Position numbers and translations under genes: made by a program. Below the pieces are notes generated by a model, which made no database searches, had not been told where the DNA came from, and was given only the letters and a program-made list of their open reading frames with translations. A stretch of DNA of 64,000 nucleotides, taken from Streptomyces yatensis. Its GTDB lineage: Bacteria; Actinomycetota; Actinomycetes; Streptomycetales; Streptomycetaceae. The stretch spans positions 5,394,001 to 5,458,000 of the forward strand of contig NZ_CP072941.1 of assembly GCF_018069625.1 (NCBI RefSeq), in the 5' to 3' direction. Positions 1-11,084 of the stretch are shown here, piece after piece (the stretch's first letter is position 1; each line of letters starts with the position of its first letter).

Positions 1-1198
1 CGACGTAGGCCGGGTCCTGGAGTGCGGTGGGGCTGGCGTCGGGCCAGTTGCGGATGTCCTCCCCGAGCGCGACCACGGCCGCTTCGGCGGTCTTCTGGGC
101 GAAGGACAGGCCCACCGGGCACACGTCCCGGATGAAGGTGGGGATGGCGTCCCCGGTTGCCTTCTGTGTCGCGATGATCACCAGGATGCCGACGTTGCGG
201 CCCTTCTTCACCAGGTCCTCCACCAGCCGCGCGTTCTCGGCGGCCAGCGCGGCGAGCTTCTTCGTCCGCGTGTCCGATCCCTTGTAGTCGCGGAAGTAGG
301 TGTGCGCTTCGTCCACGATGAGCACGGTCAACGGCCAGGCGGCTGAGGGCCCGAGGTGCCACATGTTCTTCACGCCCAGCAGGGCACGGATGGACGCCGA
401 CCGGTCCCGCCGCAGCTTCACCAGCCGCGTGAACAGCGCGTTCGCCTCTTCCAGATCGTCACCGACGAACGCGAAGATCCGGTCCGTCAAGTCGGCGTAG
501 TCGCCCTCATGGGATGAGGTCACCTTCCCATCGGCCACCGCGTACTGCACCGCATCGGACGGCGCCGTATCGCAGATGAACCGGTTGACCAGGGACGTCT
601 TGCCGAAGCCGGGCAGCCCGGCCACGGTGACACCGGGCACGTTGGCCAGGCTGACGCTTACCGGCTGCGCGTACTCGTCCAGGCCCAGATCCCACACCGC
701 CAGATCCTCCGGCACAGCCCCAGACGGGGTGTGCTCGGTGGGAACGATCAGCGGATCAACCCGCACCCCACGGATCACCAGCGTCCCCGGCTGGTCCGGT
801 AGGACCGAAACCCGCGTGCACCGCCATGCATCGGCCAGATACGGGGCCGCCCGCTGGAACTCCGCCAGGCCCACCTTGGGCAGGCAGACCGCGTGCACCA
901 GCACCCCGTACCGGTCGGCCGCGACCCGGATCTTCGGGATGAGGACCCGTGGCTTGGGGACCTTGCCGTCCGGGGCCACGATCACGGCCGGAGGAGTCTT
1001 GTCGGTCACCGACAGCCCGACCATCGGGGCCAGCCGACGCCAGCGCCGCCGTACGCCGATGGCCTGCCGCATGCTCGCCCGCGTCATTTTGTCGGCACGC
1101 ACATAGCGCACCAGCCACCACAGGGCCCATATGCCGATCAGGGCCAGGGCCGCCCCGGCAACAGCCGGGGCAGACCCGAACACCTCCTGCACAGTCAC
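1..1198 (-). CDS. FtsK/SpoIIIE-like conjugal transfer ATPase (partial)
   Basis: Translation of the minus strand stays open from a GTG at 1198 to the left edge, so the C-terminus is missing. An N-terminal hydrophobic stretch (about residues 8-25) is followed by a P-loop, GLPGFGKTS, and a Walker B segment reading LIVDEAH. This is the architecture of TraSA/TraB double-stranded DNA translocases of Streptomyces integrative elements, which move DNA between mycelia from the membrane. The GTG overlaps the stop of the upstream gene (GTGA at 1195-1198), so it is translationally coupled. Chromosomal FtsK is much longer and lies elsewhere, and the Pra/KorSA-like neighbours point to the conjugation protein. 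Family call is firm; the specific role rests on context. Confidence 0.85.
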   Translation of the reverse strand, partial: MTVQEVFGSAPAVAGAALALIGIWALWWLVRYVRADKMTRASMRQAIGVRRRWRRLAPMVGLSVTDKTPPAVIVAPDGKVPKPRVLIPKIRVAADRYGVLVHAVCLPKVGLAEFQRAAPYLADAWRCTRVSVLPDQPGTLVIRGVRVDPLIVPTEHTPSGAVPEDLAVWDLGLDEYAQPVSVSLANVPGVTVAGLPGFGKTSLVNRFICDTAPSDAVQYAVADGKVTSSHEGDYADLTDRIFAFVGDDLEEANALFTRLVKLRRDRSASIRALLGVKNMWHLGPSAAWPLTVLIVDEAHTYFRDYKGSDTRTKKLAALAAENARLVEDLVKKGRNVGILVIIATQKATGDAIPTFIRDVCPVGLSFAQKTAEAAVVALGEDIRNWPDASPTALQDPAYV

Positions 1199-1398
1199 AG
1201 CACGTCCTTGTTCGTGTAGAGGAATCGGTAGAGGGATATCCGCAGTTCCAGCAGGTCACGGCCGGATGCGAGCTTGGGGTAGCCGTGCGACTCGATCACC
1301 TTGGCCACGTCGAAGAGCAGGCCGTTGGTGAACCGCGAGTCGTCATCCCCGCTCTCCGGCTCAACCGGATAGACCGGCTCAGGGGCAGCGGCCGTCAC
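1195..1398 (-). CDS. Small protein of the transfer cassette, unknown function
   Basis: A 67-residue frame between the Pra-like gene and the transfer ATPase, joined to both by 4-base GTGA overlaps (1395-1398 and 1195-1198). That makes a GTG start at 1398 far more likely than the ATG further upstream, which lies inside the Pra-like gene. The product is acidic in its first third, ends in a Leu/Tyr-rich segment, and has no membrane segment or motif I can name. Coupling to both neighbours suggests it is produced with the transfer machinery. I do not recognise the family, so the function is unassigned. Confidence 0.7.
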   Translation of the reverse strand: MTAAAPEPVYPVEPESGDDDSRFTNGLLFDVAKVIESHGYPKLASGRDLLELRISLYRFLYTNKDVL

Positions 1399-1733
1399 TT
1401 GACCAACTCCAGCGCCGCCGCCCGGTAAGCCACGCCATCGGACAACTGGCCGTTGAAGAGCCGCGCCCACGGAGTGGCGAACAGCTCCGCCACCCGCACC
1501 GGCATCCCCGGCTGGAGACCACCCGGCAGACCGCTCTCCGGCACGGTGATCTTCATCTGCTCGGCGCGGCCCTCTTCCATGAGGAACACGGTCAGGGTGT
1601 GCAGGGTCTCCCCGGTGTCACGGTCGGTGGCGACCTCACCCGTCTCGGGGTTCTTGACCTTCGGCACCGGGAGGGTGCCAGCGATGAACTGAGTGGAGGG
1701 CAGCAGCCCCACGCGAATACGGGTCATAGCCAT
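1395..1733 (-). CDS. Pra-like activator of element replication, integration and excision
   Basis: A 112-residue protein starting at ATG 1733, behind a GGGAG ribosome site; a longer frame to 1778 lacks one. The sequence (MAMTRIRVGLLPS at the start, a basic/acidic centre, an FNGQLSDGVAYRA segment near the end) matches my memory of the small Pra activators of pSAM2-type elements. In pSAM2, Pra switches on replication, integration and excision functions and is repressed by KorSA. Here it heads a coupled three-gene minus-strand operon and diverges from a GntR gene that fits KorSA, with palindromes between the two. Assignment is from family resemblance plus context, not a database search. Confidence 0.7.
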   Translation of the reverse strand: MAMTRIRVGLLPSTQFIAGTLPVPKVKNPETGEVATDRDTGETLHTLTVFLMEEGRAEQMKITVPESGLPGGLQPGMPVRVAELFATPWARLFNGQLSDGVAYRAAALELVK

Positions 1734-1787
1734 GCTCGAACTCCCTTTTGTGGCCGACCGCTTGTGCGATCGGGGCACAACTATGAT

Positions 1788-1861
1788 CTAGCCAGGCTAG
1801 CTAGGTCAAGTGAGCTAGCTACGAGAGTTCAAGGGCCTGGGTGTGTTAGGTGAGCTAACAC
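1788..1861. promoter_or_regulatory. Cluster of palindromic operator candidates between pra-like and GntR genes
   Basis: Three inverted repeats lie in the 143-base divergent gap: CTAGCCAGGCTAG at 1788-1800, TAGCTAG/CTAGCTA arms at 1798-1804 and 1815-1821, and GTGTTAGGTGAGCTAACAC at 1843-1861, which ends 15 bases before the GntR start. The last two share a core of the form TAG-GT...GAGCTA. They are probable binding sites for the adjacent GntR protein, giving autoregulation and repression of the pra-like operon, as KorSA does in pSAM2. Confidence 0.65.
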
Positions 1862-1876
1862 GGCTACCCTGGGACC

Positions 1877-2311
1877 ATGACGCCGTCGACGCACGACGCC
1901 CGCCCGCCGTATCAGCAGGCAGCCGAGGCCATCCGGGCCGAGATCAAGGCGGGCAAGCTCAAGCCGGGGGAACAGCTCCCCTCGCATCGCGAGCTGCAAG
2001 AGCGGTTCGGCATCGCCAACATGACCGCCCGCAGCGCTCTTCGCGTACTCCGGGAAGAGGGCTTGATCTACACGGTGCAGGGGCGTGGCAGCTATGTCGC
2101 AGACGTCGTCGGACCCAGCAACGAGGTCATGGGGGTTGTGTCAGGTCTGGTGGTGCAGGCAGGAAAGGTTCCGGACCCCGACAGCGCTGAGGCAGACGGG
2201 GCCGTGATCGAAACCCTTCAGGCTGTCCGTGACCAGCTCCGAGCCTTGAACGCGGAGGTCCAGACCCTCAAGCGGGAAGTCGCCGAACTGAAGGCGCGGC
2301 AGGACTCGTAG
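1877..2311 (+). CDS. GntR-family repressor (KorSA-like)
   Basis: A 144-residue protein with an N-terminal GntR winged helix-turn-helix (about residues 10-75, including PGEQLPSHRELQERFGI and EEGLIYTVQGRGSYV). It has no ligand-binding domain; the C-terminus (about 105-144) is a heptad-rich probable coiled coil that could serve for dimerisation. This short form, divergent from a Pra-like gene, matches KorSA of pSAM2, which represses pra and its own gene. The perfect 7-base-arm palindrome directly upstream fits autoregulation. The 3' end overlaps the convergent small gene by 44 bases. Confidence 0.85.
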   Translation: MTPSTHDARPPYQQAAEAIRAEIKAGKLKPGEQLPSHRELQERFGIANMTARSALRVLREEGLIYTVQGRGSYVADVVGPSNEVMGVVSGLVVQAGKVPDPDSAEADGAVIETLQAVRDQLRALNAEVQTLKREVAELKARQDS

Positions 2312-2471
2312 CCCGCTCCTCCTGGATCTCCGCCACCTCCGCACGAATCTCCTCCAGCTCACCGTGCAGGCGCTCAGCCATCGACGCGATCTCTGCCAGC
2401 AGCGCCCGCTCCTGCTCGGTCAGCACCAGTTCCCCCTTGTCGTCTGCGCGTTGGTCGCGCGCATCCTGCAT
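2268..2471 (-). CDS. Small coiled-coil protein, unknown function
   Basis: A 67-residue frame starting at ATG 2471 behind GGAGG, 6 bases upstream, which is the main reason to accept it. The middle (about residues 15-52) is a dense run of Glu, Leu, Ala and Arg in heptad-like spacing, so a coiled coil is likely; the tail is Pro/Arg-rich. It converges on the GntR gene and overlaps its 3' end, which itself encodes a coiled coil. An interaction between the two is conceivable but is only inference. I know no characterised homologue. Confidence 0.55.
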   Translation of the reverse strand: MQDARDQRADDKGELVLTEQERALLAEIASMAERLHGELEEIRAEVAEIQEERATSPAAPSVRRLPA

Positions 2472-2529
2472 TGCGATCCTCCGGCGATCTTCTGGTGCGA
2501 GCTGTTCAGAGTTTCCTTACTGGATCAAG

Positions 2530-2551
2530 GCGGCCCGCTTGCGCGGGCCGC
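2530..2551. terminator. GC-rich hairpin
   Basis: Perfect 9-base arms GCGGCCCGC (2530-2538) and GCGGGCCGC (2543-2551) with a TTGC loop. It lies just upstream of the small minus-strand coiled-coil gene, so it could stop leftward read-through toward that gene. No U-tract follows, as is usual in Streptomyces. Confidence 0.4.
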
Positions 2552-3213
2552 GCGCGCTGGCGGCCCGTGGCCGCCGCCCGCTCCTGTCTGCCGCCCCGCT
2601 CAGCGGCGTCCCCGTGCCACTCAGCGCGCCACCCCGCACCAGTAGCCCACCAAGCGCAGTCAGTACCCGGAACAGCTCCCACGGAGCGCCTGGTGATCAC
2701 CGCGAACATGCCGACGCAGCGGCACGGCCAGGACCAAGGGCCCGAGCTGCCAGCCGTCGAGGGGCGGCTACGCAGAGCGGTTTACATGGCGGACCGTCCG
2801 CCGACTGCGGCCATCGTCGTTGTGCGCGTAGCAACGGCCAGCGGGGAGGGGAGGGGTGCCTGGCCGGGGGTATGTCGGCCGTCGGCCCCGGCCCGATGTG
2901 GCCGGCCGTCGTACTGTCGCCGTCACGGATGCGGGCGCGTGAGCAGACCGAACTGCCCGGTCCTGGTGGGCGGGGAGCAGCAGCTGCCGCGCGGTGGCTC
3001 AGGCCGTCGCGGTCGCTCCGCGTCGGTTTCCGTATCACCGTGGCTGACCACCGTGTCGTAAACGCTCTGGAGACTGCCACCACCTCGCATCTGCCTCGCA
3101 CTCGTCACCATCCCTTTCCTGCGTCTGAACTCATCTGGGGACAGGCAGAGTCGAAGCGAGCACGACAACCGCCCCGGTACCATCGGCACCGGGGTCCTGA
3201 TCATGGACTCTCC

Positions 3214-3257
3214 GCCGGACCACCCCGCGCCTGCCAGGGTTTGAGGGGTGGTCCGGC
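3214..3257. terminator. Terminator hairpin after the DUF7848-like operon
   Basis: Perfect 13-base arms GCCGGACCACCCC (3214-3226) and GGGGTGGTCCGGC (3245-3257), with an 18-base spacer. It sits about 75 bases past the stop of the minus-strand gene ending at 3332 and is the likely end of the HATPase/DUF7848-like transcript. Confidence 0.6.
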
Positions 3258-3331
3258 TTCAGGTCTGAAGTTGTTGAGGGCGGGGGCCGCCGGTCCCTCC
3301 ACGACTGCGACCCCCGCCCAGCCTTGAGGGG

Positions 3332-3625
3332 CTACGCGTCAGGCGTCGCCGTTCGGCCTCGCACAGCCGTCGCGGAAGAGCCCACGTTCGCCGTGGACGC
3401 GCGGAAGAAGCTCGTGATGATCAGGCGGAATCCCGTGTGGCCCGTCTGGTTCGCGTGACGCAGGCACCACACCTCCGGCTGCTTGGCCTCTTCAGTCGCC
3501 CCGGATGAGTCGTCACACGTCGTGCATTCGGCCTCCAAGATCGGAGGACTTCCGGTGACGTCTGTGCTCAGGGTCCACAGGGTCCAATCGCCCTGCCGTA
3601 TCACGGAGTTTCCGGCGGTCGTCAC
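3332..3625 (-). CDS. DUF7848-like small protein
   Basis: A 97-residue protein with a CTTC pair near residue 35 and the segment WCLRHANQTGHTGFR around 53-67, a pattern I associate with the Streptomyces DUF7848 family. These often lie next to XRE regulators and anti-sigma-type ATPases, as here. Cys and His spacing hints at metal binding, but no function is established. The GTG start overlaps the stop of the ATPase gene (GTGA, 3622-3625), so the two are coupled. Confidence 0.75.
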   Translation of the reverse strand: MTTAGNSVIRQGDWTLWTLSTDVTGSPPILEAECTTCDDSSGATEEAKQPEVWCLRHANQTGHTGFRLIITSFFRASTANVGSSATAVRGRTATPDA

Positions 3626-4083
3626 GACTGCCCCTCTCTACGCTCTCCACTGGCCAGTGAGGCCCGTTCGTCGGCAGGAAGTGCGAGGACCGCCCAGACC
3701 GCCTTGCCCACCGCTGGCCGTGGGGTGACGCCCCACTGATCGGCGAGCGTTTCCACCAGGACCAGCCCTCGGCCGCGTACCGATTCGGGGGTCGGAGTCC
3801 TCAGCTTGGGCAACTGGTCGGCCGCGTCGTGAACCTCGATCCGCACCTTGTCGCCCTGGTGCAGATAGCGCGTCTCGATCTGGCGCCCCGGCACCCGCGC
3901 ATGACGCACGGCGTTCGTTATCAATTCGGACAGCACCAACAGCGCGGCCTCTTCGACCGCGATCAGCCCCCAACCAGCCAGAGCCTTCCGCAAGTCGGCT
4001 CGGGCCAGGGCGACACAGCGGGGGTGGCGGGTCCAACGCCTCACCACCACGCGTCCATCCGGGCCTGTCAGCTCTGGCTTCAT
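3622..4083 (-). CDS. Anti-sigma-type ATP-binding protein (HATPase_c_2)
   Basis: A 153-residue GHKL-fold protein of the RsbW/SpoIIAB-like type. The N-box reads ELITNAVRHA and the glycine box reads GRGLVLVETLADQWG. There is no histidine phosphoacceptor domain, so it is not a sensor kinase. Streptomyces encode many such proteins beside XRE regulators (AbaA/WhiJ-type loci), where they are thought to bind or phosphorylate partner regulators. It diverges from an XRE-TPR gene across two GGGGTACCCC sites and is coupled to the DUF7848-like gene. The start could also be a GTG six bases upstream; neither has a strong ribosome site. Confidence 0.85.
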   Translation of the reverse strand: MKPELTGPDGRVVVRRWTRHPRCVALARADLRKALAGWGLIAVEEAALLVLSELITNAVRHARVPGRQIETRYLHQGDKVRIEVHDAADQLPKLRTPTPESVRGRGLVLVETLADQWGVTPRPAVGKAVWAVLALPADERASLASGERREGQS

Positions 4084-4125
4084 GGCCACAAGCGTGCAGG
4101 TGAGACGCCCTCATCGGGACAGCCA

Positions 4126-4160
4126 ACGGGGTACCCCAGGCGGTGAAACGGGGTACCCCA
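4126..4160. promoter_or_regulatory. Twin GGGGTACCCC operator candidates
   Basis: Two identical 13-base copies of ACGGGGTACCCCA begin at 4126 and 4148, 22 bases apart (about two helical turns), between the divergent ATPase and XRE-TPR genes. Each contains a perfect 10-base palindrome. A further GGGTACCCC occurs inside the XRE gene near 4525. They are likely sites for the XRE protein. Confidence 0.6.
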
Positions 4161-4218
4161 ATCCATGGCGCGATCTACGCTGGACTGGACGCACGTCCCT
4201 ACACCTCGTGAGCGGCCC

Positions 4219-5766
4219 ATGAGTGAACGTGAAGCCAGGCGCAGCGGATACCCCCTCACCATCCCGGACCGCTTGCTCCTGAGCGAGGACATGAAACGGG
4301 CATGCAGGCGAAGGGACTTCGGCGAGATCTTCCGTCTCGTCAACAGACGAGCCCCAGCGAGCTACGCGGCGATCGCCGCCGCCGTCACCAAGATGACCAG
4401 CGCGCGTGTCGGCGACGTCATCCGAGGCGATCGGGGCATTCGCAGCGTCGCCGTCATGGAACGCATCGCTGATGGTCTGGGCATTCCCGGCCACATGCTC
4501 GACCTGCCCGAACGGCCCTGGGAGGGTACCCCGCCACCGGCCGCCGCTGCCCAGAACCAGGCTTACGCTCGCAGTAGCCCAGACGGCTCGAACGAACCCC
4601 CGTCCCTACCCGCAACGGGGGCGATTCCTGGTCTGCCGATTGTGCACGTGGACCCATCGAAGTCGGCGGACGCGGATGCGCTACCCGAAATCGTTCTGGT
4701 TTCGGTGTACGTCGATGGAAGGGAGCAGATCGTGCCGATAAATCGCCGAGCCCTTCTCGGGCACGCAATTGGTGTCGCCCTGCAAGGAAGCGGAGCCCTC
4801 CGTGCCGTCAACGCTTCCGCCGAGATCGTCAGTCCCCAGCCCACCAGACCACACCGACTCCCCGCCGGACGAGGCGAAGCAGCCATCGAGCACTTCCGCG
4901 ACATGTGGCACACCCTGGTCAGGGCCGACAACCTCTTCGGCCCGCGTCACGCTCTCGCGGGAGTCCATCAGCAGCTCGACATGCTGCAAGGTCTTCTGGA
5001 GGACAGCAGGGGCGAGCACCGGCAAGAGCTGCTGAAGCTCTCGGCCCAATACGCCGAGTCCGCCGCGTGGCTCCACGAGGACTCCATGGACGTGTCCAGC
5101 GCGGAGACATGGACGAGCCGGGCCATGGAATGGGCCATGGAGGCCGGAGACGAAGCCATGCTCTCGTGGACGCTGTTCCGCCGCAGCCAGCTTGCGGCAA
5201 GGAAGAAGAACGCAGGCCAGGCGATCGGCCTTGCCCAGGCCGTGCAGCGCCACGAACGAGCGCTCTCCCGGCCGATGAAGGCAGCCGCCATCCAGCAGGA
5301 GGCGCAGGGACTTGCGCTCGACGGGGACGAGATCGCCTGTCAGCGGAAGCTGGACGAGGCGCACGAGTTCGCCGCCATCGCCGAATCCTCCGGTGACGCC
5401 CGATCCGGCCATGGGGACTTCTGCACTCCCAGCTATATCGAAATCCAGCGCGCGAATTGCTGGCTCAACCTCTCCCGGCCGGATCGAGCGGTCTCTACCT
5501 TCCAGACCGCATTGACCGAACTCCCGGACGTCTATCAGCGCGACCGGGGATTCGCCCAGGCGCGGCTCGCGATGGCCTACGTGGGAATCCAGGAGTACGA
5601 GCAGGCCGCTGCCGAGGCCGCAGCCGTTCTCGACATGGCCCGGGGCTCCGGTTCCGGCCGCACTCTGCAAGAGGCCGTCACGGCAGTCAACGCTCTCGCG
5701 GCGGCGAGTAATGTTCCCGCTGTGCGGGATCTACTCGACGCAGTCAAGGAGAATGCGGGGTTCTGA
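4219..5766 (+). CDS. XRE-type regulator with TPR-like sensor region
   Basis: A 515-residue protein. Residues about 10-95 form a lambda-repressor-like DNA-binding domain of the kind found in Streptomyces (DFGEIFRLVNRRAP, VGDVIRGDRG, IADGLGIP). A Pro/Ala-rich linker follows, and the C-terminal half (about 220-515) is helical with tetratricopeptide-like repeats. Such repeats often sense peptides or partner proteins. The ATG at 4219 gives the usual N-terminus; an in-frame ATG at 4165 would place translation directly after the operator pair. Its TGA shares one base with the ATG of the RibD-like gene, so the two form an operon. Confidence 0.8.
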   Translation: MSEREARRSGYPLTIPDRLLLSEDMKRACRRRDFGEIFRLVNRRAPASYAAIAAAVTKMTSARVGDVIRGDRGIRSVAVMERIADGLGIPGHMLDLPERPWEGTPPPAAAAQNQAYARSSPDGSNEPPSLPATGAIPGLPIVHVDPSKSADADALPEIVLVSVYVDGREQIVPINRRALLGHAIGVALQGSGALRAVNASAEIVSPQPTRPHRLPAGRGEAAIEHFRDMWHTLVRADNLFGPRHALAGVHQQLDMLQGLLEDSRGEHRQELLKLSAQYAESAAWLHEDSMDVSSAETWTSRAMEWAMEAGDEAMLSWTLFRRSQLAARKKNAGQAIGLAQAVQRHERALSRPMKAAAIQQEAQGLALDGDEIACQRKLDEAHEFAAIAESSGDARSGHGDFCTPSYIEIQRANCWLNLSRPDRAVSTFQTALTELPDVYQRDRGFAQARLAMAYVGIQEYEQAAAEAAAVLDMARGSGSGRTLQEAVTAVNALAAASNVPAVRDLLDAVKENAGF

Positions 5767-6650
5767 TGGCCACGCCGAACGAACTGACGGCCATGCGGCG
5801 AGCAATCGCCATCTCTGCCCAGGGCCTCGGGACGACGAGCCCCAACCCGCCCGTCGGGTGCGTGATCCTCGACCGCGACGGCGTACCGGTCGGCGAGGGG
5901 TACCACCTCCGCAAGGGCGACCACCACGCCGAGGTGAACGCGCTCACCGCAGCGGGGGAGCGGGCCGAGGGCGGCACGGCGGTCGTGACCCTGGAGCCCT
6001 GCAACCACCACGGCCGGACCCCGCCCTGCCGACAGGCACTGATCGACGCAAAGGTGTCCCGCGTCCTGATAGCCGTCATGGACCCGACCTCACGAGGAGA
6101 GGGCGGCGCGGCGGTGCTGGAGCAGGCCGGCATTGAGGTAGAGCGCGGCGTCCTGGAGCAGGAAGCGCTACTCGTCCTCGGCCCGTGGCTCCACTCACTG
6201 CGTACCGGAAGGCCGCACATCACCTGGGCGTACAGCGTTGGCATCAACGAGGGCCACAGCGACCAGGTCTTGACCGAGCTCCGCCGCACGCACGATCTGG
6301 TGATACGGCGGTACGGGGCGATTGAGGAAGGCGTGCTAGGCGGCCACGGCGAAGACGCGTTCCGTGTGCCAACTGGACCGCTTGGTGACGAGCCAGCCAA
6401 GGTCGTACGCGACTTCACCGAGTCCGGCGCACGCTCGGTGCTCATCGAGGGCAGCGATAACGAGGTAGCACGTTTGCTTGCTGACCTGGTGGACCGCATA
6501 GTCATCGATGTGCCCAGCACTCCTCCGTCCTCAGTACCAACACCAGCAAGCAAGTTGGTCCCGAGCGAATTCCGGCTGGTAGATGCAGGGTGCCCTGGCC
6601 CGCAGGTGCGTCTGATAGCGATACGAGAGTCAGCCGGAACCATTAGCTGA
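5766..6650 (+). CDS. Short RibD-like deaminase
   Basis: A 294-residue protein. Residues about 8-130 are a cytidine-deaminase-fold domain with TSPNPPVGCVI, the zinc motif HAEV, and PCNHHGRTPPC, all diagnostic of the RibD pyrimidine deaminase of riboflavin synthesis. The rest (about 165-294) resembles the RibD reductase half but is shorter than usual (complete RibD is about 360 residues) and degenerate, with GARSVLIEGSDNEVARLLA recognisable. It is coupled to an XRE-TPR regulator rather than to rib genes, so a specialised role is likelier than housekeeping riboflavin synthesis. A hairpin at 6722-6742 probably ends the transcript. Confidence 0.8.
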   Translation: MATPNELTAMRRAIAISAQGLGTTSPNPPVGCVILDRDGVPVGEGYHLRKGDHHAEVNALTAAGERAEGGTAVVTLEPCNHHGRTPPCRQALIDAKVSRVLIAVMDPTSRGEGGAAVLEQAGIEVERGVLEQEALLVLGPWLHSLRTGRPHITWAYSVGINEGHSDQVLTELRRTHDLVIRRYGAIEEGVLGGHGEDAFRVPTGPLGDEPAKVVRDFTESGARSVLIEGSDNEVARLLADLVDRIVIDVPSTPPSSVPTPASKLVPSEFRLVDAGCPGPQVRLIAIRESAGTIS

Positions 6651-6721
6651 TGGCTGATGTTGGTGGGAACGTGCCCGCTGACGCGCGAGAGCGGTGCTTG
6701 GCAGCAGACGTTTGGGGTGGC

Positions 6722-6742
6722 TGGGCCCTCGACGCGGGCCCA
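6722..6742. terminator. Hairpin between RibD-like gene and NACHT operon
   Basis: Perfect arms TGGGCCC (6722-6728) and GGGCCCA (6736-6742) with a 7-base loop, 72 bases after the RibD-like stop. It separates that operon from the NACHT operon, implying an independent promoter for the latter within 6743-6850. Confidence 0.5.
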
Positions 6743-6859
6743 ATGTTCTAAGCCTCCATCGCTTGGGTAGTACTGCTGCGGCGACGTTTAGACGAAGGCT
6801 AATCAGCACGACCTACGCCGAGTAGGCGGTCACAAAAATGCAGATCAGGGGGAAGACGT

Positions 6860-7213
6860 ATGGATCTGACCACGTTAGCTGATGCAGGAGCCACAGCGTA
6901 CGTATCGGGTGTGGCAAGTCATGCTGCGACTGCCACAGACTCCGCGATCCGAACTTACTTTCTGCGACTTCGTTCGTTCCTAACTTCTCGTGCTGTAAGT
7001 GAGGAAGAACTCCAGGTCATCGATGAACCTGCCCTGTCGAGTAGAATCCTGACGTTGTTGGAGGAAGATCCCAGCAGCGTTGCAGCGCTGAAGGAAATCC
7101 TTGGCGGTATTTCCAAACAAACAAATATTGAAGGTGCTGGAACGGTCTATGGCGACGTTAACCTGCGCGGCAAGTATGTGGCCGGTCGCGACATTAGGTT
7201 TGATGGGCGTTGA
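6860..7213 (+). CDS. Small partner of the NACHT NTPase, GRDI-module protein
   Basis: A 117-residue protein starting at ATG 6860 behind GGGGGAAG. Residues 1-45 are Ala/Thr-rich and helical; 47-85 look like a second helical segment rich in Glu and Leu. The C-terminus (about 96-112) reads VYGDVNLRGKYVAGRDI, nearly the same as the N-terminus of the next protein. Sharing this module suggests that the two proteins assemble through it or descend from one split or duplicated precursor. Codon use has many A/T third positions, unlike the flanking chromosome. The stop overlaps the next start (TTGA, 7210-7213). I know no characterised homologue; an adaptor or regulator of the NACHT protein is inferred. 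Confidence 0.7.
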   Translation: MDLTTLADAGATAYVSGVASHAATATDSAIRTYFLRLRSFLTSRAVSEEELQVIDEPALSSRILTLLEEDPSSVAALKEILGGISKQTNIEGAGTVYGDVNLRGKYVAGRDIRFDGR

Positions 7214-9225
7214 CACCCATAAGTTTTTTAAACAGCTTGCGACGCCGCCTGAACTCCAGGTCACCTCAGACCACATTTGGTGACGTTGATATATCTGGCT
7301 ACTTTGCGGCCGGTCGCGATATCAACGTACGCAATGTGGCCGTTGTGGATTCGCTTCTAGAGAAGCGGGATGCGCGTATTCGTAGGAAGCTCATTACTAA
7401 AGTGCTGCCCGCGTGGGTGAGAGGGGAGGAGTATTGGCGCGGCGGGGAAAGTATGGATCTTCCTGCATCGATGGAGTTTGGGATCTCCTATGTGGCTCGA
7501 CAGCAGCTGCATCGGGATCCGATGAACCAACTTTTCGCGGCTGAAAGATGGGAGTCCATGGATGTCAATCAGGCGCTAGAAGTATCGTCTGGCAAGCTGC
7601 TCATACTGGGTAACTCTGGCACCGGTAAGACCCGTGCCTTACATAAAATTATGCACACGGCGATTAATCAGGCTACGTTGGGCGATCACAGCCCTGTACC
7701 CTTCTACCTGCATTTGTCCGAGTGGTCTGGACCTCGCAAGGAGATGTGGCGCTGGTTCGTTCAGTCCATTCACGAAACATATGGAGTTCCCCAGAGAATT
7801 TTAGTTCAATGGCTCACGGACTCCGAGTTAATGCTGATCCTTGACGGTCTCGATGAACTGAGGTTCCGAGAGCGGCGCGAGTGTATATCTGCTCTAAATA
7901 AATTCGTGTCCAGTAACCCCGGTACGCAAGTTGTGGTTGCTAGTCGACTGAATGAATACCGTGACACGGGGAGGAAGCTTAATCTTAAAGCCTCTTTGGT
8001 GATCAATGAAATCGACGAGCGTCAAGTATCCGATTTTGTCGGTAGCTTCGGGGATTCTCTTTCTAACCTCAATCACGCTCTGGGTCGGGATGGCCAACTC
8101 AGGCAACTCCTGTGCAACCCGCTGATGCTCCGCTTAGCGATTTCTGTGTACTCAGCAGGCGATTCGCCGGATTTTGCTGCATCTGGTGACAGGCGAAGGA
8201 GTATCCTGGCGGCCTATGTTAATTCCGCCGAGCGTAGCATGAAGAGGGGGGCTGACGCGGGAATGTGGCTCGCTTTCACGGCCCTTGGGTTGAGAGAGCA
8301 GCGTAGGTCGCTCTTTTGCCCGGATCGCGCCCCGGTGGAATTTCTCCCCAATAAGTTTAAGAAATTGGCGGAGACGCGTACGCTGCTGATGGCGTTTCTG
8401 TTTGTTGCGGTCCCCTCGTTTATTCTGCGGCTTGTGATGGCTCTATTCGCCCCGGAATCGCCGTCTAAAAGCGTTCATCTCAGTTTGGCTTTTGCTGTGC
8501 CGATTACTTATGGATCCCTTGCTTGGATGGTAGCTAGAGGTGACATATGGGCGCCTGCGGTTGCTAGAAGGACATCGGTGGCGCGCAGCCTGTTTAAATT
8601 CGCCAAGCGGCTTCTCGGGGTGCTCCTTGTGGAGGGAGTGATGGGGATTTCGCTTGTTCTGTCTGGCGCGGCAGATGATTTTCTGGGCGGTATATGTTTG
8701 GCTTTTCTAACCGTGCTTGCAATCTTTCCTGCGCTTAAGATGGCTCGTGAATCTCAGACGTTAGACCCGAGCGAGATGCCTGATCGTGTAGGTGGAGAGA
8801 TTTCTAATCTGGTTCGCTCCACTGTGACAGTCGCCATCCTCGTATCTGCGGCAACTTATGTAACCTTGTCTGCGGCATTCTATTTTTTTCGTTCCGCCTC
8901 TGTCGTCAGTCAAGGAATGCTCTACTCTCCGCTTCTTAATTCCTTCTTCTACGTAGTTCCGACCGCCTTCATTGCCGCTCTAAGGAATGGGGGATTGGAT
9001 TTGATCCGGAGAGGCCAATGTAGGCGAATAATGACAAAGGCGGGTTATTTTCCTCGGCGTCATAAGACTTCGCTTGAGGAAGCCAGGCGGGTTTCGCTAC
9101 TGGTTCCGCGCCGAGGGGCTTTGGAGTTTAGGCACCCACTGATCAGAGATTATCTTTCTGAGTGTATTTCCGGGGATGGCTTGCACCCATTCGTGTCCCT
9201 TCGGAGCACGCAAAAAGCCGAATGA
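7210..9225 (+). CDS. NACHT-type STAND NTPase with membrane segments, probable defence protein
   Basis: A 671-residue protein from a TTG start; a stop just upstream in frame leaves no earlier start, and the TTGA overlap couples it to the previous gene. Residues 23-38 are FGDVDISGYFAAGRDI, shared with the partner. The NTPase core has Walker A GNSGTGKT (134-141), Walker B LILDGLDEL (209-217) and a sensor-like VVVASR (241-246). About six hydrophobic segments follow (392-412, 423-441, 468-486, 490-508, 537-558, 573-591), then a C-terminal FRHPLIRDYLS (640-650), a motif recurrent in actinobacterial NACHT proteins. Many bacterial NACHT/STAND proteins abort phage infection; membrane disruption on activation is a plausible output here but is unproven. 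GC is close to half, far below the neighbours. Confidence 0.85.
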   Translation: MTPISFLNSLRRRLNSRSPQTTFGDVDISGYFAAGRDINVRNVAVVDSLLEKRDARIRRKLITKVLPAWVRGEEYWRGGESMDLPASMEFGISYVARQQLHRDPMNQLFAAERWESMDVNQALEVSSGKLLILGNSGTGKTRALHKIMHTAINQATLGDHSPVPFYLHLSEWSGPRKEMWRWFVQSIHETYGVPQRILVQWLTDSELMLILDGLDELRFRERRECISALNKFVSSNPGTQVVVASRLNEYRDTGRKLNLKASLVINEIDERQVSDFVGSFGDSLSNLNHALGRDGQLRQLLCNPLMLRLAISVYSAGDSPDFAASGDRRRSILAAYVNSAERSMKRGADAGMWLAFTALGLREQRRSLFCPDRAPVEFLPNKFKKLAETRTLLMAFLFVAVPSFILRLVMALFAPESPSKSVHLSLAFAVPITYGSLAWMVARGDIWAPAVARRTSVARSLFKFAKRLLGVLLVEGVMGISLVLSGAADDFLGGICLAFLTVLAIFPALKMARESQTLDPSEMPDRVGGEISNLVRSTVTVAILVSAATYVTLSAAFYFFRSASVVSQGMLYSPLLNSFFYVVPTAFIAALRNGGLDLIRRGQCRRIMTKAGYFPRRHKTSLEEARRVSLLVPRRGALEFRHPLIRDYLSECISGDGLHPFVSLRSTQKAE

Positions 9226-9432
9226 TCGTGGCCGAAGGTTGCTAGAGCGGGTTCGGGCAGTGGTGTACCTAGTCTGACTACCCTCTCTTTAAAGCTGTTG
9301 CGACTGTGCACCATGTGCGGGGCTGCTGACATCAGTGTTGACATCAACGACGGCACACGACGTCCGCCATCGGCCCGCTATGGACACCAGGCCGGACCAC
9401 CACCGAGACCCGAACCAGCACCCCGCCCGAAC

Positions 9433-9474
9433 CTACGGATCAAGAGGTTGCAGGTTCGAATCCTGCCGAGCGCG
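9433..9474 (+). other. Right attachment site: 3' part of a tRNA-Arg(ACG) gene
   Basis: The sequence contains an anticodon loop CTACGGA (anticodon ACG, 9435-9437), the 3' anticodon-stem strand TCAAG, a 5-base variable loop, a perfect T-arm (GCAGG/CCTGC around TTCGAAT, 9450-9466) and an acceptor strand CGAGCGC (9467-9473). The matching D-arm, 5' acceptor and 5' anticodon strand are absent upstream, so it is not an intact tRNA. A tRNA 3' end left at the edge of an integrative element is the standard product of tyrosine-recombinase integration. The intact tRNA should lie left of the window. Confidence 0.75.
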
Positions 9475-9483
9475 CACCAGCTC

Positions 9484-9515
9484 AGAGGCCCCTTCCAGTG
9501 ATGGAAGGGGCCTCT
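9484..9515 (+). terminator. Terminator of the original tRNA locus
   Basis: Perfect 14-base arms AGAGGCCCCTTCCA (9484-9497) and its complement (9502-9515) with a GTGA loop, 10 bases past the tRNA fragment. It is probably the host tRNA terminator displaced by integration. A near copy lies at 10695-10728. Confidence 0.75.
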
Positions 9516-10055
9516 TGCGTATGCGGTGACGGCGGGCGGTGACAGCAACCGCCGCGCGGCTCTCTCAGGCCGTTGCCGGGACTCCGCCCCATCCCTCACG
9601 CACCACCCGCCGGGCCGATCGCTGAGTCTTCGGCAGCGATCAGCAGTTCCCCGTCAACGCGCTGGATCTTCTGTCGGGTGGCGGCCGTGCCGTCCGACAG
9701 ACCCACGTCCTTCCAGGGGAGGCTCAGAACCTCACCGCGCCGCAGACCGGATCCGACGGACTGCTGGGCGGGGGTGGCGGGTCACAGTCGGGCCGCCAGG
9801 CGTTCCCGAAGGCGTAGTCGTGGGCGGGGGAGTGGTGTTGACGGCAACGTCGGCACGCGACACCTGCCGACGGCGTTCGGACTCCGTCCGGGGCGGACGT
9901 TTTCCCAGGTCAGTGGGTGTGGCGCGCATCGGCGTAAGCGTGGTGTTAAGCGTTGCTGGGTTCCATTAGGCATCCGTTAGTCGAACGCCAACGCGGTCTT
10001 CGAAGCTGATTGTCGTCCGGGAGCGAGACAAGACAACGCAGTAATGGGAGACACG

Positions 10056-10631
10056 ATGAGCACCATCACCAACCGCTTCCGCGGCCGCGCCGGCCGCCGC
10101 ATCGCCGCCACGATCGTCGCCGCCGCGGCGCTGGGACTGGGGGCCACGGCCTGCGGGCCTGACTCCGATGCTGCGGACTCCAGCGGCTCCTCGGCCTCTT
10201 CGACCGCGTCCCCCTCGCAGGAAGCATCGAGCCAGCCCACCGGCGGCTCCTCCTCGGGCAACTCTGGGTCGCAGGGTCAGAACGGAGGCGAGTCCGCCGC
10301 CCCCGGGGGCGGTGTCGCCAACGCGGGTAACCACCGCACGATCGTCGGCACGATGGAGTACCTCGCGCCCGGCAAGCTGATCGTCAAGCCCAAGAGCGGA
10401 GGCATGGACCAGGCGTTCCTGGTCGCCAACGCCACGAAGATCCTCGGCGCGGCCGCGATCTGCACCGCCCCCGACGGCAGCGTGGCCATCGGCGACGACG
10501 GCTACGGCACCGCGAAGTGCACCGTGGACGAGCTGGAGAAGGCCGCCAAGACCAACAGCGTGACCGTCCGCGTCACCATGGACCGTAAGTCCGGCGGTGC
10601 CGAGGTCGTCGAGGAGAAGTACCACCCGTAA
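10056..10631 (+). CDS. Probable secreted lipoprotein
   Basis: A 191-residue protein. ATG 10056 follows GGGAG by 5 bases and is preferred over an ATG at 10044. The N-terminus is Arg-rich, then a hydrophobic core and an ATAC lipobox with Cys at about residue 34. A Ser/Gly/Gln-rich linker (about 40-90) leads to a compact domain with a Cys pair (in AAICTAP and TAKCTVD). It has the look of a cell-surface lipoprotein conserved in Streptomyces; function unknown. It is monocistronic, with a terminator about 65 bases downstream. Confidence 0.75.
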   Translation: MSTITNRFRGRAGRRIAATIVAAAALGLGATACGPDSDAADSSGSSASSTASPSQEASSQPTGGSSSGNSGSQGQNGGESAAPGGGVANAGNHRTIVGTMEYLAPGKLIVKPKSGGMDQAFLVANATKILGAAAICTAPDGSVAIGDDGYGTAKCTVDELEKAAKTNSVTVRVTMDRKSGGAEVVEEKYHP

Positions 10632-10694
10632 GTCGTCGTCTTGGGCGTGAAACGCCCTTGCCGCGCCCCGGTGTGGCTCTGCGGCGAAACAGCT

Positions 10695-10728
10695 AAGAGG
10701 CCCCTTCCAGAGATGGATGGGGCCTCTT
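10695..10728. terminator. Terminator, near copy of the one at 9484
   Basis: 15-base arms (10695-10709 and 10714-10728) starting AAGAGGCCCC, with one T-T mismatch and a GAGA loop. The sequence and the flanking TTGCGT match the terminator beyond the attachment site, suggesting duplication or a shared repeat family. Confidence 0.65.
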
Positions 10729-10772
10729 GCGTTGTCCAGTGACGGTGGTCGTTGCCTGCGGAGCATGTCGGG

Positions 10773-11084
10773 TTAATTCTTGCGGCGGCGCCGCTGTCCA
10801 TAGGGGCCGTGGCGATCGTGTGCGCGCCACTCCTCCTCATGGATGTCGCGGTCTTCGTTGCCCGCGGTGCTTCCAGGAGTCGGGATCTTCTCTCCGGCAT
10901 CGATTCTGGCCTGTGTCGAGGCGAGTTGGCGGTCGATGCGCTCGTCGTCCGAATGCTTGCGCTCAGACAGCGGTCCCGGGGACGGCGGCGTGTGCGCTAT
11001 CTGCCTGACGTTGTGACGCTGTGGTTCAGGGGTGGTGTTCCCTGCCTCCGCGCCGTTCTGATGCGACCGTGACGTACTGCTCAT
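10773..11084 (-). CDS. Hydrophilic hypothetical protein
   Basis: A 103-residue frame, highly charged and rich in Arg, His, Glu and Asp, ending in an RRRRK run. There is no membrane segment or known motif. Codon use is reasonable for the genome, and the opposite strand gives a less credible mixture. The ribosome site is weak, so this is a tentative call. It may be an intrinsically disordered protein. Confidence 0.4.
   Translation of the reverse strand: MSSTSRSHQNGAEAGNTTPEPQRHNVRQIAHTPPSPGPLSERKHSDDERIDRQLASTQARIDAGEKIPTPGSTAGNEDRDIHEEEWRAHDRHGPYGQRRRRKN

What the first reader, a model, noticed from the sequence alone, without database searches (positions are those of the whole stretch)
6860..9225. 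Two-gene NACHT system with a shared GRDI module: candidate undescribed defence system
A 117-residue protein and a 671-residue NACHT NTPase are translationally fused (TTGA overlap). The first ends, and the second begins, with nearly the same module: YGDVNLRGKYVAGRDI and FGDVDISGYFAAGRDI. The NACHT protein has intact Walker A/B motifs (134-141, 209-217), about six membrane segments and a C-terminal FRHPLIRDYLS. Bacterial NACHT proteins are established anti-phage factors, but I know of none described with this small partner and shared motif. Inference: the module lets the two proteins dock, and the membrane part is the effector.
Basis: partly seen in the sequence, partly recalled or inferred. Interest (0 to 1): 0.9.

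Follow-up and report, generated by a model that had tools for sequence, protein, structure and literature searches.

The report
Mobile NACHT receptor–effector pair sharing motif
Two overlapping Streptomyces genes, carried on a mobile DNA element, encode a membrane-bound immune-type receptor and a small helical protein that share one short sequence tag; the layout matches the known bacterial 'amyloid signalling' pairs in which a receptor switches on a separate, probably cell-killing, partner.

Summary
In detail: ORFs at 6860-7213 (117 aa) and 7210-9225 (671 aa, NACHT, intact Walker motifs) overlap by 4 nt and share a 16-residue module (9 of 16 identical). The module is real: profile score 34.0 against a best of 13.5 in 60 column-permuted controls, and it is the best-conserved part of each family. 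The principle is not unknown: small helical effectors with a C-terminal motif, encoded beside or overlapping an NLR with the same motif at its N-terminus, were described in 2020 as bacterial amyloid signalling (BASS) pairs. The small protein is colinear with a BASS-like 'VQARDI' family, though its helical domain alone gives only marginal support. The membrane part is probably not the effector: distant relatives carry TIR, CHAT or kinase domains where this protein has the motif. New here: a membrane-spanning NACHT receptor with a GRDI motif that I could not test against the published profiles; cyanobacterial loci in which the motif type of both adjacent genes matches (14 of 14; a fifteenth has no adjacent partner); and carriage on a 13.5-kb integrated element at tRNA-Arg, with a nearly identical pair in Streptomyces antioxidans. 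I know of no phage, toxicity or amyloid experiment on this pair.

The parts
6860..7213 (+). 117-aa helical protein with C-terminal motif tail; proposed Bell-like effector
   Evidence: ORF; no Pfam/PADLOC/NCBIfam hit; AlphaFold2 six helices res 3-88, tail 89-117 unstructured, pLDDT under 50; colinear with VQARDI Bell-like family, hhalign E 1e-5, score 37.4 vs best of 60 controls 16.5
7148..7195 (+). motif copy 1, YGDVNLRGKYVAGRDI (residues 97-112 of the small protein)
   Evidence: GKYVAGRDIRFD invariant in 18 of 18 sequences
7210..7213 (+). TTGA overlap: stop of the small gene and TTG start of the NACHT gene (translational coupling likely, inferred)
7210..9225 (+). 671-aa NACHT NTPase with polytopic membrane C-terminal half; proposed receptor
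   Evidence: NACHT E 4.8e-12; Walker A 134-141, Walker B 209-217; hydropathy
7276..7323 (+). motif copy 2, FGDVDISGYFAAGRDI (residues 23-38 of the NACHT protein)
   Evidence: invariant in 7 of 7 sequences apart from V/I at residue 26 and I/V at residue 38; similarity to copy 1
8395..8982 (+). membrane-spanning region, residues 396-591 of the NACHT protein, five family-averaged hydropathy peaks
9444..9479 (+). right attachment site of the integrated element (3' end of tRNA-Arg repeated)
   Evidence: 36-bp exact repeat, 2 copies in the genome at up to 3 mismatches, the other at the 3' end of tRNA-Arg(acg); near-identity with the S. antioxidans copy ends about 20 nt past it

Best explanation
The operon is a BASS-type receptor-effector pair. 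The NACHT protein sits in the membrane through its C-terminal half and acts as the sensor. On sensing an invader or a membrane change it binds nucleotide and oligomerises, which clusters its N-terminal GRDI motifs. The clustered motifs fold together into a beta-rich (cross-beta, amyloid-like) nucleus that templates the similar C-terminal tail of the 117-aa protein, and that protein's helical domain then damages the membrane or otherwise stops the cell (abortive defence). Shown: the genes, the overlap, motif sharing and conservation, NACHT motifs, predicted helical domain plus disordered tail, cyanobacterial loci with matched motifs, mobile-element context. Inferred: docking, amyloid templating, membrane killing, defence.
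For: Layout as published: motif at the NLR N-terminus and the effector C-terminus, adjacent or overlapping genes (passages). Motif similarity far above controls. Small protein: helical bundle plus disordered motif tail, colinear with a family of small helical proteins ending in VVQARDI (426 at E up to 0.001 in a capped search, 120 listed and used); the VQARDI motif also stands near the N-terminus of NB-ARC proteins (3 checked with Pfam). A trimer 'ARD' is reported in BASS2 (PMC9815663 passage). Cyanobacteria: of 15 places encoding a relative of the Acaryochloris helical partner, 14 have a downstream gene 4-13 nt away whose N-terminus carries the same motif type, 4 VQIGGxAGRD and 10 QG[DN]xN, none mixed; that gene is a NACHT protein or a piece of one in 8 of 14. 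The VQIGG and Streptomyces motifs align above controls (19.8 and 20.3 vs at most 10.6 and 11.9). Relatives hold TIR, CHAT or kinase domains at the N-terminus. The Acaryochloris helical partner hits a PADLOC phage-defence candidate, PDC-M14B, 41.9 bits. Mobile, low-GC cargo.
Against: The helical domain alone matches the Bell-like family only marginally (19.5 vs best control 17.5). No strongly hydrophobic helix in the small protein (0 of 17 with a window of 1.6 or more in the first 70 residues; also 0 of 120 in the VQARDI family). The VQARDI and cyanobacterial VQIGG motif profiles do not align with each other (score 8.8, prob 0.2), so one common motif ancestry is not shown. The RHIM-type VQIG core is replaced by VDIS and VNLR. 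No structure of the motif: AlphaFold2 leaves the tail disordered. Published BASS profiles could not be run. No amyloid, toxicity or phage data. Two of 7 NACHT clusters and 13 of 18 small-protein clusters have no partner visible. The cyanobacterial QG[DN]xN loci carry the helical domain mostly as the end of pentapeptide-repeat proteins, not as a small protein.
Confidence: 0.66

Rival explanations
1. One reading: the motif docks the small protein as an adaptor, and the NACHT membrane half is itself the pore-forming effector.
For: The membrane half is present and conserved; the small protein has no strongly hydrophobic helix of its own.
Against: Relatives keep membrane segments while carrying different catalytic domains (TIR, CHAT, kinase) at the N-terminus; the bacterial NACHT C-terminus acts as sensor (passage).
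Confidence: 0.14
2. The small protein is a negative regulator: its tail binds the NACHT N-terminus and holds it inactive, as in an antitoxin, and loss of the complex releases NACHT activity.
For: Co-translation by overlap would give matched dosage; a homotypic tail fits a binding role.
Against: In the cyanobacterial loci the upstream helical domain is mostly fused to pentapeptide-repeat proteins and the partner is not a NACHT protein in 6 of 14, which fits a recruited module better than a dedicated inhibitor.
Confidence: 0.1
3. The pair is a signalling device of the mobile element or of Streptomyces development (for example superinfection exclusion or transfer control), not phage defence.
For: It is cargo just inside the right end of an integrative element with RepSA, integrase and FtsK-like genes.
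Against: NACHT/NLR plus separate effector is a usual plan of immune signalling; being cargo on mobile elements is equally typical of defence systems (established knowledge, not tested here).
Confidence: 0.1

Closest known systems
BASS (bacterial amyloid signalling sequence) NLR/Bell pairs (Dyrka et al. 2020, J Mol Biol; paper not held, known to me through passages of PMC7889193, PMC8086366, PMC12261475, PMC9815663)
   Same: Two adjacent or overlapping genes; short motif at the C-terminus of a small helical protein and the N-terminus of an NLR; filamentous actinobacteria and cyanobacteria.
   Different: Receptor here ends in a polytopic membrane domain (whether published BASS receptors do was not tested); motif is GDVxxxGxxxAGRDI, assignment to BASS1-10 untested; helical domain only marginally like the Bell-like family used here.
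VQARDI family (probably BASS2, inferred only from the reported ARD trimer)
   Same: Small helical protein with a C-terminal VxARDI-like tail; matching motif near the N-terminus of NLRs.
   Different: VQARDIxGPxxF instead of YVAGRDIRFD; NB-ARC receptors (3 checked) instead of membrane NACHT.
RHIM-like motifs / BASS3 (and cyanobacterial VQIGGxAGRD pairs found here)
   Same: Cyanobacterial NACHT-membrane relatives carry VQIGG followed by AGRD, aligned to the Streptomyces motif.
   Different: Streptomyces motif lacks the VQIG core (VDIS, VNLR).
Bacterial NACHT anti-phage proteins (bNACHT)
   Same: NACHT NTPase with intact Walker A and B.
   Different: No effector domain found in cis; effector proposed in trans; membrane C-terminal half.
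Effector-associated domains (EADs; Kaur et al., PMC8195603 passages)
   Same: Works alike: a non-enzymatic domain shared by receptor and effector recruits one to the other by homotypic contact.
   Different: EADs are folded domains; here the shared part is a 16-residue motif. One other locus, L040, shares a whole ~68-residue domain between adjacent genes in the EAD manner.
HET-S/NWD2 fungal amyloid signalling pair
   Same: Works alike: receptor N-terminal motif templating the C-terminal motif of a separate helical killer (PMC12881547 passage).
   Different: No sequence homology claimed; amyloid not shown here.

Membership tests
BASS pair | NLR gene next to or overlapping a small effector gene | tested here: met
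   TTGA overlap, NACHT E 4.8e-12; that the small gene is an effector is inferred
BASS pair | Same motif at NLR N-terminus and effector C-terminus | tested here: met
   hhalign E 3.7e-8, score 34.0 vs best of 60 controls 13.5; invariant core in both families
BASS pair | Effector domain is a Bell domain (homology) | tested here: inconclusive
   Full-length hhalign to 120 VQARDI proteins score 37.4 vs 16.5, but domain alone 19.5 vs 17.5; calling that family Bell is my inference; no published Bell profile at hand
[quoted passage not shown]
   Helices predicted; hydropathy window of 1.6 or more in 0 of 17, and in 0 of 120 VQARDI proteins (first 70 residues)
BASS pair | Motif matches one of BASS1-10 profiles | not testable with these tools
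   Profiles not at hand; the source paper is not held
BASS pair | Motif forms amyloid / prion | not testable with these tools
   Needs experiment
RHIM-like / BASS3 motif | (I/V)Q(I/V)G core (recalled) | tested here: not met
   VDIS and VNLR in the window; [VL]QIGG present on both sides of the 4 cyanobacterial pairs of that type
bNACHT anti-phage proteins | NACHT domain with Walker A and B | tested here: met
bNACHT anti-phage proteins | Protects against phage | not testable with these tools
   Needs experiment
bNACHT anti-phage proteins | Match to a curated anti-phage NACHT model | tested here: not met
   NCBIfam DS8 20.5 bits (cut-off 790), EruA 19.4 (1000); PADLOC PDC-S60 27.7 bits over residues 123-274 only
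Actinomycete integrative element | tRNA attachment repeat, tyrosine integrase, RepSA, FtsK-like translocase, GntR regulator | tested here: met

The most novel reading that the evidence does not exclude
A membrane-embedded NACHT receptor class, shared by actinobacteria and cyanobacteria, plugs into interchangeable effectors through a matched amyloid-type motif: the same receptor core has used GRDI, VQIGGxAGRD and QGDNN tags, or a TIR/CHAT/kinase fused in their place, and motif type changes in receptor and partner together. The GRDI tag is a motif family of its own, derived from RHIM-like or ARD-type motifs after loss of the RHIM core, and the pair travels between Streptomyces species on a tRNA-Arg integrative element.
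Probability: 0.4. Interest if true: 0.72.

Novelty: new member of a known kind. Interest (0 to 1): 0.52.

Why it matters
A 2021 review by the discoverers says that the outcome of bacterial amyloid signalling 'remains to be explored' (PMC7889193, passage), and I saw no later answer in my listings. This pair is compact (2.4 kb), intact, on a mobile element, in a genus that can be engineered, and has diverged homologues with a fixed motif; that makes receptor-to-effector templating, and whether it stops phage, directly testable. The cyanobacterial loci, where motif types match in 14 of 14 adjacent pairs, give a natural specificity test.

Tried and rejected

Other copies: no second copy of the small gene in the genome; none in plasmids, phages or viral contigs. 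A1 profile: 1 of 394 family genomes, the window's own (the loose first look scored 11 candidates in the genomes listed, so weak copies may be missed), and 0 of 70 genomes of another genus of the family (the tool notes that an empty answer there shows nothing). P0012 query: 1 of 61, own. Exact motif DNA: 2 of 392 Streptomyces, own and G1040. The partner of the 114-aa class of small proteins (such as P0009, P0011-P0017) stayed unknown.

An upstream-pair scan over 48 fetched NACHT and NB-ARC loci: besides the window's own pair, 7 loci exceeded the 95% bound of their shuffles. Six did so narrowly or in alanine-, proline- or arginine-rich stretches and I set them aside by eye; the seventh, L040, is strong (152 against 36) but shares a whole domain of about 68 residues, not a short tag. 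My first version read minus-strand loci in the wrong orientation and was discarded; for the window's own pair (L027) cut the N-terminus before the GRDI part, so it under-scores (41 against 27). A first regex for the second cyanobacterial motif type matched nothing and was redone. P0018 (181 aa, probably a wrong start) was left out and the hydropathy count, so 17 of 18 rows were used. Of 27 VQARDI pattern hits in 20 of 61 genomes (the pattern read backwards gave 5) I judged by eye 4 effector-side, 16 receptor-side or N-terminal (one cut by a contig end) and 7 spurious.

The stem-loop at 7203-7220 is no more than chance (4 terminator-like sites against 3.0 expected).

Full report
WHAT IS THERE. 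Two genes on the + strand, 6860-7213 (117 aa) and 7210-9225 (671 aa, TTG start), overlap at TTGA. The second has a NACHT domain (Pfam E 4.8e-12), Walker A 134-141 and Walker B 209-217, and a hydrophobic C-terminal half with five family-averaged hydropathy peaks between residues 396 and 591 (four strict windows in this protein alone). The first has no family match. AlphaFold2 on 18 homologues gives six helices over residues 3-88 and an unstructured tail 89-117 (mean pLDDT 72.5, tail under 50). The tail of the first (97-112) and the N-terminus of the second (23-38) share a module, 9 of 16 residues identical.

IS THE MODULE REAL? The tail profile (17 homologues) against the NACHT N-terminal profile (7 homologues) gives hhalign probability 95.0, E 3.7e-8, score 34.0; the best of 60 column-permuted controls scores 13.5. 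GKYVAGRDIRFD is invariant in 18 of 18 small proteins and FGD[VI]DISGYFAAGRD in 7 of 7 NACHT proteins, while residues around the NACHT motif drift (majority fraction 0.40 for 1-20, 0.94 for 21-40, 0.71 for 41-120). Small and NACHT clusters share longest-contig length and source name in 5 of 7 NACHT clusters: the window's own genome, S. olivochromogenes, S. buecherae, NPDC005494 and NPDC059874. For the last four that is co-location on a contig, not proof of adjacency. The remaining 2 NACHT clusters and 13 of 18 small clusters show no partner in those lists. S. antioxidans (L002) has the same two genes adjacent.

WHAT IT MATCHES. [quoted passage not shown] also PMC9815663, passages; PMC8086366 and PMC12261475, passages). 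The primary paper (Dyrka 2020) is not held. To test kinship I searched 61 related genomes for a VQARDI pattern that I recalled from Streptomyces NLR proteins: 27 hits in 20 genomes, against 5 for the pattern read backwards. By eye, four are small helical proteins ending in VVQARDIxGPxxF, sixteen stand in N-terminal stretches, and seven are spurious; the three N-terminal cases that I checked are NB-ARC proteins. The small family has 426 members at E up to 0.001 in a capped search, 120 of them listed. Our small protein aligns with those 120 over residues 29-113 (score 37.4, E 1e-5; best of 60 permuted controls 16.5; reversed 17.5). Split up, the motif gives 18.8 (controls up to 11.9) and the helical domain only 19.5 (controls up to 17.5), so kinship of the domain itself is likely but not secure. 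PMC9815663 notes an ARD trimer in BASS2, which is why I think the VQARDI family is BASS2; I could not check it.

CYANOBACTERIAL RELATIVES. The best plasmid match of the NACHT protein (residues 25-386) is an Acaryochloris protein, followed by one on an Acaryochloris 'Moss Beach' plasmid. There a 144-aa helical protein lies 13 nt upstream, and both carry [VL]QIGGxAG[RG]D. Tblastn of that helical protein hits 14 plasmid records, 15 places, all of which I read. Fourteen have a downstream gene 4-13 nt away whose N-terminus carries the same motif type: 4 VQIGGxAGRD and 10 QG[DN]xN, none mixed; one (L102) has no adjacent partner. The downstream gene is a NACHT protein or a piece of one in 8 of these 14 (four annotated NACHT in Nostoc, L012, L090 by similarity, and two shortened copies in 'Moss Beach'); in the others it is FGE-like (2), a protein next to MoxR, a pentapeptide protein, and two short or unnamed ORFs. 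In nine of the ten QG[DN]xN loci the helical domain is the end of a pentapeptide-repeat protein. The records are related, so 14 is not 14 independent events. The VQIGG profile (8 short sequences from 4 loci) aligns with the Streptomyces NACHT N-terminus (20.3; controls up to 11.9) and with the small tail (19.8; controls up to 10.6), but not with the VQARDI motif profile (8.8, probability 0.2). The Streptomyces motif lacks the VQIG core that is typical of RHIM-like motifs (core recalled).

WHICH PART IS THE EFFECTOR? Among 25 distant NACHT relatives (P0026-P0050; the search scored only the 7996 candidates sharing most words) the precomputed Pfam domains list TIR in 4, CHAT in 5 and a protein kinase in 1 (N-terminal in the three that I scanned). 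Of these 10, 9 show at least four membrane windows, as do 22 of the 25 (P0034, P0049 and P0050 do not). By eye, three carry short tag-like N-termini instead (P0037, P0038, P0042). In bacterial NACHT proteins the C-terminus is the sensing part (PMC12169576, passage). So the N-terminal slot is where the output sits, and in the window it is filled by a tag. This speaks against the membrane half as effector.

OTHER SHARED-DOMAIN LOCI. In a scan of 48 fetched NACHT and NB-ARC loci for similarity between a receptor N-terminus and the end of an upstream ORF, one other locus stood out: in L040 the two share about 68 residues (score 152, shuffle bound 36), in the manner of effector-associated domains, which are thought to recruit effectors by homotypic contact (PMC8195603, passages). 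It was not followed further.

MECHANISM PROPOSED. Sensing by the membrane-anchored C-terminal half; NACHT oligomerisation; nucleation of a beta-rich assembly by clustered N-terminal tags; templating of the tail of the 117-aa protein; release of its helical domain as membrane-damaging or otherwise lethal effector. Only the sequence facts are shown. HeLo-like domains are understood to expel an N-terminal helix to form a pore (PMC9815663); here no strongly hydrophobic helix is visible in the small protein (0 of 17), nor in the VQARDI family (0 of 120).

MOBILE CONTEXT. The 36-bp 3' end of tRNA-Arg(acg) occurs exactly twice in the genome at up to 3 mismatches, at the tRNA (C1:5389920-5389955; ARAGORN) and at window 9444-9479. 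Between them lie a tyrosine integrase, a RepSA replication protein (E 5.9e-156), a DUF2637 protein, an FtsK-like translocase, a GntR regulator, an HATPase protein, a protein with a weak HTH match and a deaminase: a 13.5-kb actinomycete integrative element with the pair just inside its right end. GC is 0.50-0.56 over the pair against 0.65-0.69 in the windows 3000-6600 and 9300-10800. In S. antioxidans there is one difference in the two genes, and near-identity ends about 20 nt past the attachment repeat. The 500-bp bins from 6000 to 9500 hold 2 differences (one of them past the repeat), against 22-36 per bin over 4000-6000, so the pair region looks like a recently exchanged block. It is rare: 1 of 394 family genomes by profile and 2 of 392 Streptomyces by exact motif DNA.

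VERDICT. Observation confirmed; interpretation partly supported; new member of a known kind, with a bolder reading (swappable tags on a membrane NACHT core) left open. In the listings of my literature searches I saw no description of this pair and no phage role of BASS pairs; the library lacks most subscription papers.

Noticed in passing
window 1-9479 and G000:C1:5389920-5403479 (L106): A 13.5-kb integrative element (integrase, RepSA, FtsK-like, GntR) bounded by a 36-bp tRNA-Arg repeat holds the pair at its right end.
   Followed up: yes
window about 6000-9500 against L002; G1040 contig C218: S. antioxidans copy is nearly identical over the pair but differs by 22-36 per 500 bp over 4000-6000; in L002 the integrase-to-translocase part has no match in place, and three attachment-like repeats lie on G1040:C218, by coordinates probably the same contig: a mosaic or tandem element.
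   Followed up: partly
L040 (positions 2-952 and 901-3369): Upstream ORF end and NACHT-type protein N-terminus share about 68 residues (score 152, shuffle bound 36): an EAD-like homotypic pair.
   Followed up: no
G000:C1:9946268-9946768 (L008): Another NACHT protein of the same genome has an N-terminal tag of a different type, NEFSGTAHTVIQAHTIYGGIHFN; no partner was seen next door in the stretch read.
   Followed up: partly
L050 and L039: NACHT-type proteins of other Streptomyces with RHIM-like N-terminal tags (NNIFQGTADIVIQFRDNFGEIHVH; STADYLIQVGVLHGDLNLTL).
   Followed up: no
L092-L101: In nine of ten loci the cyanobacterial helical domain is the C-terminal part of a pentapeptide-repeat protein, with a constant 9-nt gap to the downstream gene (L099 differs: separate 158-aa protein, 4-nt gap); the downstream gene may be NACHT, FGE-like or other.
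   Followed up: partly
P0051 (L012:2990-3424): Cyanobacterial small helical partner matches PADLOC candidate PDC-M14B at 41.9 bits.
   Followed up: no
L058, L062, L070, L077: VQARDI-type small helical genes with no receptor N-terminus visible in the roughly 700 nt downstream that I read, so the receptor may be encoded elsewhere.
   Followed up: partly
L013 and L103 (Acaryochloris 'Moss Beach' plasmid pMB05): Two copies of the small-plus-NACHT arrangement, both with shortened or split NACHT frames near transposases.
   Followed up: no
L033, first 750 bases: Regularly repeated peptide frames that look like a CRISPR array upstream of a NACHT-type gene.
   Followed up: no
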